A stretch of DNA of 64,000 bases from Candidatus Centipeda massiliensis (GTDB lineage Bacteria > Bacillota > Negativicutes > Selenomonadales > Selenomonadaceae), in contig NZ_LT985755.1 of NCBI RefSeq assembly GCF_900290285.1, positions 262,431 through 326,430 on the forward strand. The letters run 5' to 3'. A program made the position numbers and the translations under genes. Below the pieces are notes generated by a model. It was not told where the DNA came from, ran no database searches, and saw only the letters and a list, made by a program, of their open reading frames with translations. Shown in pieces: positions 6,536 through 41,606 of the stretch. How positions within the stretch are numbered: the stretch's first letter is position 1; every line of letters starts with the position of its first letter.

Positions 6536-6607
6536 TCGTGAAGTCCTCTCCACGAATCCCCTTCCTGTCGCTCGCAGGTCTGTGCCCTCGGCACACGGTG
6601 GATTGTC

Positions 6608-6788
6608 AAACAGGCAGTTCTCCTGACTCGGTTCATCACTCCCCTGCGCCTTCCCATGAGGATATCCCTCCCAGTGACACAATGCAGGTTTGCTCCCCTC
6701 ACAGTGGCGGGACCGCGCCGGCTCATCCGGCTTCTCTATTAAGCATGCGCATTTGCGCCGCACCTGTTTCCCATTGATTCAGTTGTAC
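6608..6788 (-). promoter_or_regulatory. cobalamin (AdoCbl) riboswitch
   Basis: The minus-strand leader contains the core elements of the cobalamin riboswitch in order: GGGAAACAGGTGCG near 6759-6773, then GCGGTCCCGCCACTGTGA near 6705, then the purine-rich GGGAAGGCGC, and finally the B12 box GAGTCAGGAGAACTGCCTG at about 6611-6630. It starts a few bases after the predicted transcription start and ends about 70 bases before the attenuator. High B12 should favour termination and switch off cbiK. Confidence 0.95.
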
Positions 6789-38795: not shown

Positions 38796-39335
38796 TTAAA
38801 ACAGGCTCTGCTCCTCGTATATGGGCTGCTGCATTTTTTGGTAGCAGTAGAGCGTCGCAAGCGTATCTGCGAGTGCTCCGTGTGCCTCGGTCATGCCCCA
38901 GTCATAGCGGTAGTACGCCGCACATTCTGTGAGCTTCCACCAACGATAACCGCCGCGCCGCGCATCGGGAACCTTGCGGAACTCCGAAAAGGCAAGCATG
39001 ACATCATGGCGGTTCGGATTCGTGATGCGAATGCCGGATTGTCTCAAAAGACGGATATCAAACTCGATATTATAGCCGACAAGCAGGGTATCCGGATCAT
39101 TGAAGATCTGTTCAAGCTGCGCCTGCTGCGCACGAATCGGCGGACAGTCTGCAACCATTGCGGGCGAGATCCGATTGATCTTCTCCGCATCCGGCCACGC
39201 CGTCTTACGCACGGGCGCGTACATCCCATCCACTACAGTCGTTCCGCTTCCATCTACGACAGCAAGCGTCAGCACCTCATCGTCGCTGCGAAAACCCGTT
39301 GTCTCGGTATCAAAGACCAGAATTCTTTCTAGCAT
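38796..39335 (-). CDS. DEDDh 3'-5' exonuclease (DnaQ-like)
   Basis: The 179-residue protein has ExoI LVFDTETTGF near the start, ExoII in LVGYNIEFDIRLLRQ and ExoIII with the catalytic histidine in TEAHGALADTLAT. All five DEDDh acids are visible. It resembles the proofreading epsilon domain or RNase T-like trimming enzymes; no clamp-binding or PolC fusion is present. It has a consensus promoter of its own and is followed by the small membrane-protein gene. Confidence 0.87.
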   Translation of the reverse strand: MLERILVFDTETTGFRSDDEVLTLAVVDGSGTTVVDGMYAPVRKTAWPDAEKINRISPAMVADCPPIRAQQAQLEQIFNDPDTLLVGYNIEFDIRLLRQSGIRITNPNRHDVMLAFSEFRKVPDARRGGYRWWKLTECAAYYRYDWGMTEAHGALADTLATLYCYQKMQQPIYEEQSLF

Positions 39336-39393: not shown

Positions 39394-39422
39394 ATTATAT
39401 CGTATACAAAATCATCTGTCAA
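39394..39422 (-). promoter_or_regulatory. consensus promoter for the exonuclease gene
   Basis: TTGACA and TATAAT with exactly 17 bases between them, reading minus. The -35 is 17 bases from the edge of the long inverted repeat. Confidence 0.88.
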
Positions 39423-39438
39423 GAAAGTGCCCGAACTC

Positions 39439-39665
39439 GGGTCTATGGAACTGTTACGGATTCGCGATGCGTACTCCACGCAGAACCCTCGTTACGCAAG
39501 CGGACGTGTGCTCGTCCGCCTAAATACCTGCGGATTCCAAACGCGCTGCGCTTGAACGGTTAAAATCCGCAGGGGGCGGGTCGCACACTCTACGCCGCTT
39601 GCTCCACTAGGGTTTGCTTAGGAGTACTGCATTTGCTTTTGTCCGTAACATTTATCATAGTGCCC
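39439..39665. repeat. 227-bp degenerate long inverted repeat in a divergent intergenic region
   Basis: The two arms (about 39439-39537 and 39564-39665) are imperfect inverted copies. Shared blocks in the same order outside-in are CTATG, TGTTACGGA, GTACTCC, AACCCT, GCAAGCGG, GTGTGC and CCTGCGGATT. The loop is about 26 bases. It holds no good ORF. It accounts for most of the 482-base gene-free stretch between the exonuclease gene and fprA. It may be a MITE, a hairpin RNA gene or a binding array. Confidence 0.8.
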
Positions 39666-39709
39666 TGTACTCTGCCGTTTCTGTGGAGAAAAATACGCTG
39701 AAATTCCTG

Positions 39710-39738
39710 TTGCAAAAGATTTGTAATTAAGCTAGAAT
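39710..39738 (+). promoter_or_regulatory. promoter for fprA
   Basis: TTGCAA and TAGAAT are separated by 17 bases; transcription would start near 39745, giving a leader of about 75 bases. Confidence 0.78.
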
Positions 39739-39817: not shown

Positions 39818-40978
39818 ATGAACGCCATAAAAATCCGGGACAATATCTACTGGGTCGGAGCTATCGACTGGTCGATGCGCAGCTTTCACGGCTACGACAC
39901 GCAGCGCGGTTCTTCCTACAATGCCTACCTCATCATAGACGAAAAGATCACCCTCATCGACACGGTCAAGCGCGGCTTCGAGGAGGAAATGCTCGCGCGC
40001 ATCTCCTCTGTCATTGACCCATCGCAGATTGACTACATCATCTCGAACCACGTCGAGCCGGATCACTCGTACGGCGTGCCGCTCATCGCCGAGCTTGCAC
40101 CGAACGCGAAGGTCGTCACGAGCGCACCGAACGGACTGAAAGGGCTGCGCGCCTACTACGGTGAACTGCCCTACGAAACGGTCAAGGCGGGCGACACGCT
40201 CTCCATCGGCAAGCGCACGCTCGCGTTTGTCCCGACCCCGATGCTCCACTGGCCGGACAGCATGGTGACGTACTGCCCCGAGGAAAAGATCCTCTTCTCG
40301 AACGACGCCTTTGGCCAGCACCTTGCCTCCGGCAAACGCTATGACGATGAGAATGATCTCTCCATCGTCATCGAGGAGGCAAAGAAGTACTACGCGAACA
40401 TCCTCTTCCTCTATGGGAGACAGGCGCAGGCGGCACTCAAGGCTCTGCACGGACTCGACATCGAACTGATTGCCACGGGTCATGGCATTTTGTGGCGTTC
40501 GCATATCCCCGAGATCATTGATCTCTACAACAAATGGTCGCTCGGCGAGACCGAGGATCGTGCAGTCATCGTCTTTGACAGCATGTGGCATTCCACGGAG
40601 ATGATGGCGCATACAATTCTTGAGGCATTCATCGACAAGGGCTTCTCCGTCGGCTATTACGACATCCAAAAGAATAAGCACGCCGACATCATGACGGATA
40701 TACTCACGAGCCGTTATCTCGCCGTTGGTTCGCCGACGCTGAACAATCAGATGCTCCCGACCATTGCCGGCTTCCTCTGCTATATGAAGGGGCTTGCCCC
40801 GATTGGACGCAAGGCGTTCGCATTCGGCTCCTACGGCTGGGGCGGGCAAAGCATCCAGCAGATCGAAGATGAGCTGAAGGCGGGCGGCTGCGAGATTGTC
40901 ATGGACAAGGTGCGCATGCTCTACGTCCCCTCTGCGGAGCAGCTTGCAGGACTGCGCGATCAGATTCTCGCGCTGTAA
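39818..40978 (+). CDS. fprA: flavodiiron protein (A-type flavoprotein)
   Basis: The 386-residue enzyme reduces O2 and/or NO to harmless products in anaerobes. The N-terminal metallo-beta-lactamase domain has the diiron motif SNHVEPDHSYG, with further ligands in MLHWPDSM, SNDAFGQH and TGHGILW. The C-terminal flavodoxin domain (from about residue 250) starts AVIVFDSMWHSTEMMAHTILEAF and includes SPTLNNQMLP and GSYGWGG. No rubredoxin or reductase fusion exists, so the electron donor is elsewhere. It is one of only two plus-strand genes and has its own promoter, operator dyad and terminator. Confidence 0.95.
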   Translation: MNAIKIRDNIYWVGAIDWSMRSFHGYDTQRGSSYNAYLIIDEKITLIDTVKRGFEEEMLARISSVIDPSQIDYIISNHVEPDHSYGVPLIAELAPNAKVVTSAPNGLKGLRAYYGELPYETVKAGDTLSIGKRTLAFVPTPMLHWPDSMVTYCPEEKILFSNDAFGQHLASGKRYDDENDLSIVIEEAKKYYANILFLYGRQAQAALKALHGLDIELIATGHGILWRSHIPEIIDLYNKWSLGETEDRAVIVFDSMWHSTEMMAHTILEAFIDKGFSVGYYDIQKNKHADIMTDILTSRYLAVGSPTLNNQMLPTIAGFLCYMKGLAPIGRKAFAFGSYGWGGQSIQQIEDELKAGGCEIVMDKVRMLYVPSAEQLAGLRDQILAL

Positions 40979-41062: not shown

Positions 41063-41332
41063 TCATTTTCTTTTGTATACACTTTTCCTATGCTCAATTT
41101 CTATGGCAACAATGATGAGTTCATCGTCTTTTATGATCGCCAAGAGACGATAGTTTCCAATCCGATACCGCCAATACCCTTTTAGATTCCCTACCAGGGC
41201 TTTCCCAAATGCACGTGGATTGTCGCAGTCCATCAGATGCTTCTTAATCCACTGCGTTATCATTACTCGAACGGTTTTATCGAGTTTCTTAAATTCTCTC
41301 TCAAAATTTTCATCCGTACTAAACGTATACAT
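41063..41332 (-). CDS. RelE/YoeB-type mRNA interferase toxin
   Basis: The 89-residue product matches RelE toxins: YTFSTDENFEREFKKLDKTVRVMITQWIKKHL, NPRAFGKALVGNLKGYWRYRIGNYRLLAII, and VAIEIEHRKSVYKRK with the basic C-terminal active-site residues. It starts directly after the antitoxin stop (ATGTAGATG overlap region). Base composition is AT-richer than the neighbours, suggesting transfer. Confidence 0.88.
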   Translation of the reverse strand: MYTFSTDENFEREFKKLDKTVRVMITQWIKKHLMDCDNPRAFGKALVGNLKGYWRYRIGNYRLLAIIKDDELIIVAIEIEHRKSVYKRK

Positions 41333-41560
41333 CTACATACCACATTCAGCGAAAAATTCTTTTGCAGGACGAACTTTGCTCTTTCCCTCTGCTTCACGCT
41401 TTTCAAACTCACGAAGAACAGAAACATCATATTCATCTTCGATTTTTTCAAATGCAAAGTTCTTAATCAACGATGCTATACTGCAATCATACATCTGCAC
41501 CACTTTTTCAAGCATTTTCTGCTCATCGTCGTTAATATTGATCGTGATTCGCTTTGCCAT
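41333..41560 (-). CDS. RelB/DUF6290-type antitoxin
   Basis: A 75-residue protein with a ribbon-helix-helix-like N-terminus (AKRITININDDEQKMLEKVVQMYDCSIASLIKNFAFEKIEDEYD). The acidic C-terminal half should wrap the toxin. The start at 41560 has GGAGG 9 bases upstream. It precedes the toxin gene, the common order, and probably represses the pair. Confidence 0.85.
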   Translation of the reverse strand: MAKRITININDDEQKMLEKVVQMYDCSIASLIKNFAFEKIEDEYDVSVLREFEKREAEGKSKVRPAKEFFAECGM

Positions 41561-41606
41561 GATATTTTGCCTCCTGCCTATATTCCATGATGTCAACGCA
41601 TCCGGC

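What the first reader, a model, noticed from the sequence alone, without database searches (positions are those of the whole stretch)
39439..39665. Large degenerate inverted repeat between two divergent promoters
Arms of about 100 bp share seven ordered sequence blocks as inverted copies, with a short loop and no ORF. The element fits exactly between a consensus promoter reading left (exonuclease gene) and a promoter reading right (fprA). Such symmetry with drift suggests an old MITE, a structured RNA gene, or a conserved regulatory cruciform.
Basis: seen in the sequence. Interest (0 to 1): 0.6.

Follow-up and report, generated by a model that had tools for sequence, protein, structure and literature searches.

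The report
Small mobile hairpin element between genes
The inverted repeat is one of about forty copies of a short, protein-less jumping element of oral Selenomonas bacteria; it most likely moves with the help of a larger transposon, and its hairpin middle part keeps its shape by matched mutations even in old copies.

Summary
Window 39439-39664 is a 226-bp imperfect palindrome (fold z -8.2 and -9.6). It is a MITE: about 24-bp terminal inverted repeats, 8-bp target duplications (CCGAACTC/CTGTACTC here; 106 of 120 positions match over 15 copies, 35.7 expected), about 40 intergenic copies in this genome, relatives in 12 of 14 same-genus genomes and in none of 46 genomes outside it. The orthologous exonuclease/fprA site is empty in nine relatives, so this copy is a lineage-specific insertion, not a conserved regulatory cruciform. 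In another species (G006) virtually the same site holds a 12,964-bp transposon with a truncated ISL3-family transposase gene, an 8-bp duplication and ends of both MITE end types: the probable mobiliser.

The unexpected part is the 157-bp core. Across 55 copies its helices covary strongly (211 double-sided changes, 58 expected, 0 of 500 shuffles) while particular mismatches never change. Copies shared between species have lost the transposon ends but keep the core, sometimes in opposite orientation. That points to a selected hairpin structure (RNA or folded single-stranded DNA) riding on an ordinary MITE; its function is not shown.

Verdict: new MITE family of a known kind (like ERIC, NEMIS, YPAL) with an unusually conserved structured core.

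The parts
39431..39438 (.). left target-site duplication CCGAACTC
   Evidence: empty sites, e.g. CCATATTC in relatives; 8-bp duplication in 15 copies
39439..39664 (+). complete MITE copy, 226 bp
   Evidence: co-terminal copies in own genome up to 97% identical
39439..39460 (+). left terminal inverted repeat GGGTCTATGGAACTGTTACGGA
   Evidence: matches ISL3-family transposon ends
39642..39664 (-). right terminal inverted repeat, reading inward GGCACTATGATAAATGTTACGGA
   Evidence: transposon right end in G006 is GGCGCTATGATAAATGTTGTGGA
39468..39624 (+). conserved hairpin core (157 bp), also found without the terminal repeats
   Evidence: 55-copy alignment, 95.9% of cells paired, 21 pairs with double-sided changes
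39665..39672 (.). right target-site duplication CTGTACTC
39394..39422 (-). promoter of the exonuclease gene (TTGACA-17-TATAAT), host sequence flanking the insertion
   Evidence: conserved in relatives with the empty site
39710..39738 (+). promoter of the flavodiiron protein gene (TTGCAA-17-TAGAAT), host sequence flanking the insertion
   Evidence: conserved in relatives
38796..39335 (-). DEDD-type 3'-5' exonuclease gene (neighbour)
   Evidence: PF00929 E 2e-11
39818..40978 (+). flavodiiron protein gene, fprA-like (neighbour)
   Evidence: PF19583 and PF00258

Best explanation
The feature is a non-autonomous miniature transposable element (MITE) that inserted, in this lineage only, into the spacer between two divergent promoters. 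Shown: co-terminal multicopy element, terminal inverted repeats, 8-bp target duplications, empty orthologous sites. Inferred with good support: it is (or was) moved in trans by an ISL3-family transposase that recognises its ends; the donor transposon is known from sister species and was not found in this genome. Inferred with moderate support: the 157-bp interior is a folded hairpin under selection for its structure (covarying helices, invariant mismatches), kept after the ends have decayed. Most likely it acts when transcribed as part of a neighbouring mRNA, as a processing or stability element; alternatively the folded single strand helps the element to transpose. At the window site it separates two intact promoters by about 234 bp and no effect on them is shown.
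For: About 40 copies in the genome (46 matching places), 12 of 14 genus genomes, none of 46 genomes from other genera. 8-bp duplications: 106 of 120 positions match against 35.7 by shuffling, 0 of 20,000. Contiguous empty sites for the window locus and several other copies. ISL3-family transposase genes (PF01610, NF033550) end in GGCTCTTTGTCAATAGTTRYGGA, the MITE end type. In G006 a 12,964-bp transposon with ends GGCTCTTTGTCAATAGTTGTGGA and GGCGCTATGATAAATGTTGTGGA, duplication CCCATGTT on both sides, sits within about 1 bp of the window's insertion point. Core structure: 211 cells with double-sided change against 57.8 (sd 7.8) shuffled and at most 44 when slid; mismatches T27.C147, C39.T131 and T46.C124 are constant in 55 of 55 copies. 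Core-only copies are shared between species at orthologous sites.
Against: No transposition or transcription was observed. The parent and the MITE share only the terminal ~24 bp, so the MITE is not a simple internal deletion of the known transposon; the two ISL3 elements of this genome have other ends (GGCTCTACTCC). The transposase of the G006 13-kb copy is truncated. Most intact ISL3 copies show only one recognisable end. The strand of a putative RNA could not be decided from G.T versus A.C pairs. Orientation in host transcripts is biased in core-only copies (15 sense, 4 antisense), but at several sites another species has the core flipped, which weakens an RNA reading.
Confidence: 0.9

Rival explanations
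1. The covariation is a by-product of DNA replication: a fork stalls at the hairpin and switches template from one arm to the other, copying one arm onto the other and sometimes flipping the core. No selection on structure is needed.
For: Core found inverted between similar outer arms at orthologous sites in at least six loci, as such switching would produce; outer arms stay complementary although they differ between sites.
Against: Specific mismatches flanked by covarying helices are unchanged in 55 of 55 copies; arm-to-arm copying should erase them too.
Confidence: 0.35
2. The core is an independent mobile or functional unit (a small RNA gene, or a folded single-strand transposition substrate) that was captured between ISL3 ends, rather than part of the MITE from the start.
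For: Core-only copies without terminal repeats; core orientation relative to end types differs between subfamilies; core-only copies between codirectional genes are mostly sense.
Against: Some core-only copies keep decayed terminal repeats (L036, L031, L061), so they can be old MITEs; no target duplication or transposase specific to the core was found; the Y1/IS200-type loci of this genome are unrelated.
Confidence: 0.2
3. A conserved regulatory cruciform of the exonuclease/fprA promoter pair.
For: Position between two promoter matches facing outwards.
Against: Ten relatives have contiguous sites in the joined-flank search, and nine of them, aligned, show the same promoters without the element.
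Confidence: 0.02
4. Chance duplication or inverted duplication confined to this site.
Against: About 40 co-terminal copies.
Confidence: 0.005

Closest known systems
ERIC, NEMIS/Correia and YPAL intergenic hairpin MITEs (reviewed in PMC2229807, PMC10969869)
   Same: Short, intergenic, multicopy, almost wholly palindromic, target duplications, stable hairpin transcripts predicted; NEMIS comes in short and long forms with an internal insert, as here.
   Different: Sequence relation was tested only through Rfam; ends are GG...CC with 8-bp duplications instead of TA-type ends; found only in oral Selenomonas/Centipeda; core outlives the terminal repeats; parent is of ISL3 type.
QMITE2 of Coxiella burnetii (PMC10969869, figure 2 legend)
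   Same: 7-9 bp duplications, 23-29 bp terminal repeats, 113-145 bp core, folding energy about -113: nearly the same anatomy.
   Different: Different organism; its sequence was not compared here; covariation of the core is not described in the passages read.
ISL3-family transposons, e.g. Tn7546 (PMC9782665: IR GGGTCTTCGGA, 8-bp duplication)
   Same: GG[G/C]TCT-type ends, 8-bp duplications, ISL3-family transposase in the parental elements.
   Different: The window element has no transposase; the G006 parent is 13 kb with other passengers.

Membership tests
MITE (non-autonomous miniature inverted-repeat element) | terminal inverted repeats | tested here: met
MITE (non-autonomous miniature inverted-repeat element) | target-site duplication of constant length | tested here: met
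   8 bp, 106 of 120 positions match
MITE (non-autonomous miniature inverted-repeat element) | multiple dispersed copies, no transposase | tested here: met
MITE (non-autonomous miniature inverted-repeat element) | empty orthologous sites | tested here: met
MITE (non-autonomous miniature inverted-repeat element) | autonomous partner with the same ends | tested here: inconclusive
   matching ends beside intact ISL3-family transposases and at both ends of a G006 transposon whose transposase is truncated; one intact element with both ends was not found
MITE (non-autonomous miniature inverted-repeat element) | mobilisation in trans | not testable with these tools
   needs an experiment
ISL3 family (as parent) | PF01610/NF033550 transposase | tested here: met
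   for the parental elements; the window element itself has none
ISL3 family (as parent) | 8-bp duplication and GG-starting ends | tested here: met
   compared with Tn7546, PMC9782665
Structured RNA family | covariation beyond alignment controls | tested here: met
Structured RNA family | strand-specific pairing signature | tested here: inconclusive
Structured RNA family | transcript | not testable with these tools
   no RNA-seq available
Structured RNA family | match to an Rfam family | tested here: not met
IS200/IS605 or REP/RAYT-type hairpin elements | relation to a Y1 transposase element of the genome | tested here: not met
   two Y1 loci, no similarity to the core

The most novel reading that the evidence does not exclude
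The core is a functional nucleic-acid structure (an mRNA-borne hairpin with fixed internal loops, or a folded single strand needed for movement) that spread through oral Selenomonas on ISL3-type ends, is retained after the ends decay, and can invert in place.
Probability: 0.35. Interest if true: 0.65.

Novelty: new member of a known kind. Interest (0 to 1): 0.45.

Why it matters
It gives the oral Selenomonas/Centipeda group, in which no such family turned up in the papers searched, an abundant MITE family with a likely parent. It also offers a good natural test of whether MITE hairpins are kept for a function: many copies, several species, filled and empty sites, compensatory changes, and both orientations at the same sites.

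Tried and rejected
Rfam at gathering and at E<=1: nothing relevant to the element. Exact core pattern in IMG/VR: none, so no phage carriage seen. Y1/IS200 origin of the core: no similarity. The genome's own ISL3 elements as parent: different ends. G.T versus A.C asymmetry for RNA strand: inconclusive. Orientation bias of core-only copies as proof of RNA function: only suggestive, since it was noticed in the own copies first and other species have flipped cores at some sites. Insertion of the core into pre-existing terminator hairpins: not supported by the L067 and L066 empty sites, which lack the arms.

Full report
Observation. The stretch 39439-39664 is a near-complete palindrome; both strands fold far better than shuffled sequence (z -8.2 and -9.6). 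It lies between a DEDD-type exonuclease gene (38796-39335, -) and an fprA-like flavodiiron protein gene (39818-40978, +), each with a good promoter match facing its gene.

Copies and ends. The genome holds 46 places similar to the element, up to 97% identical; 12 of 14 same-genus genomes, the own one included, have copies, and 46 genomes of other genera have none. An exact core pattern matches only Selenomonas species (S. infelix, S. flueggei, S. felix, S. sp. FOBRC6, oral taxon 892) and Centipeda periodontii among about 85,000 species genomes. Full copies begin GGGTCTATGG and end CATAGTGCC and are flanked by 8-bp duplications, perfect in seven copies; over 15 copies 106 of 120 positions match against a shuffled mean of 35.7. 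The window copy has 6 of 8 (CCGAACTC / CTGTACTC).

Empty sites. Joined flanks of TIR-bearing copies give contiguous matches in relatives. At the window locus nine relatives, aligned, carry the two promoters and no element; the pre-insertion sequence is like CCATATTC. The insertion is therefore lineage-specific and not part of a conserved regulatory region.

Mobiliser. ISL3-family transposases (PF01610, NF033550) in G002, G006 and G011 end in GGCTCTTTGTCAATAGTTRYGGA, nearly the same sequence as one class of MITE ends (GGCTCTTTGTCATATGTTACGGA in G006). In G006 the two window flanks lie 13 kb apart. Between them is a 12,964-bp transposon with left end GGCTCTTTGTCAATAGTTGTGGAG, right end (inward) GGCGCTATGATAAATGTTGTGGAG and CCCATGTT on both sides. 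Its two ends match the two MITE end types, and its insertion point is within about 1 bp of the window's. Its transposase gene is truncated. The two ISL3 elements of the own genome have other ends. ISL3-type transposons with GGGTCTTCGGA ends and 8-bp duplications are known (Tn7546, PMC9782665). Mobilisation in trans is inference.

Structured core. A 157-bp core (39468-39624) occurs in full MITEs and in copies without recognisable ends. On 55 cores a 48-pair hairpin has 95.9% of cells paired; 21 pairs show double-sided changes; 211 such cells against 57.8 +- 7.8 in shuffles (0 of 500) and at most 44 when slid. The structure was taken from the window copy's fold, with helix 5 re-registered after inspecting the alignment, so the slide control leans towards it; the shuffle control ignores relatedness. 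Opposed bases at 27/147, 39/131 and 46/124 are the same mismatch in all 55 copies. Selection on structure explains both facts best; replication-linked copying of one arm onto the other explains the first only.

Age and orientation. TIR-bearing copies of the own genome that were tested mostly have empty orthologous sites; core-only copies are often shared by several species, e.g. the L066 site, filled with the same 189-bp gap in four relatives and empty in three. Hence core-only copies are, at least in part, old insertions whose ends decayed while the core stayed; some still show decayed ends. At several sites another species has the core inverted between complementary outer arms; inversion in place and separate insertion both remain possible. 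Among core-only sites between codirectional genes 15 are sense and 4 antisense, against 9 and 16 for copies with one or both ends: suggestive, found after looking. Genes were called there by a simple codon-score script, not by an annotation.

Nested repeats. Several copies carry a 165-bp insert in the core that is itself a dispersed family with at least 40 places in the own genome, and others a second type of insert on the right arm.

Conclusion. An ordinary kind of element (MITE), new as a family, with a likely ISL3-type parent; the surprising part is the conserved, covarying core. No Rfam family matches and no paper describing such repeats in Selenomonas was found in the library searched, which is not proof of absence.

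Noticed in passing
L059, L060, L069, L070, L077 (own), L022, L023, L084, L099, L113: A 165-bp palindromic-ended repeat (GAGGGAATCACGGACGCA...TGCGTTCGTGATTCCCC) inserted at one position of the core is itself a dispersed family: at least 40 places in the own genome and present in 12 of 14 genus genomes.
   Followed up: partly
L083, L117, L118, L119, L127, L078: A second insert type (AGCGGTCAACGTCATCCAATCACAC...GGACAGGTCAGTATTTT) on the right arm of the core, possibly another repeat family.
   Followed up: no
L254:3199-16162: A 13-kb ISL3-type transposon with passenger genes inserted at virtually the same fprA/exonuclease site in another species, suggesting a shared target preference.
   Followed up: partly
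window 6596-6782 (-): Cobalamin riboswitch, 94 bits.
   Followed up: no
window 41063-41596 (-): ParE-type toxin gene with an upstream DUF6290 antitoxin-like gene downstream of fprA.
   Followed up: no
L131, L132, L133: Intact ISL3-family transposase genes with only one recognisable terminal repeat and a strong terminator-like palindrome on the other side; L132 and L133 share about 500 bp more beyond it.
   Followed up: partly
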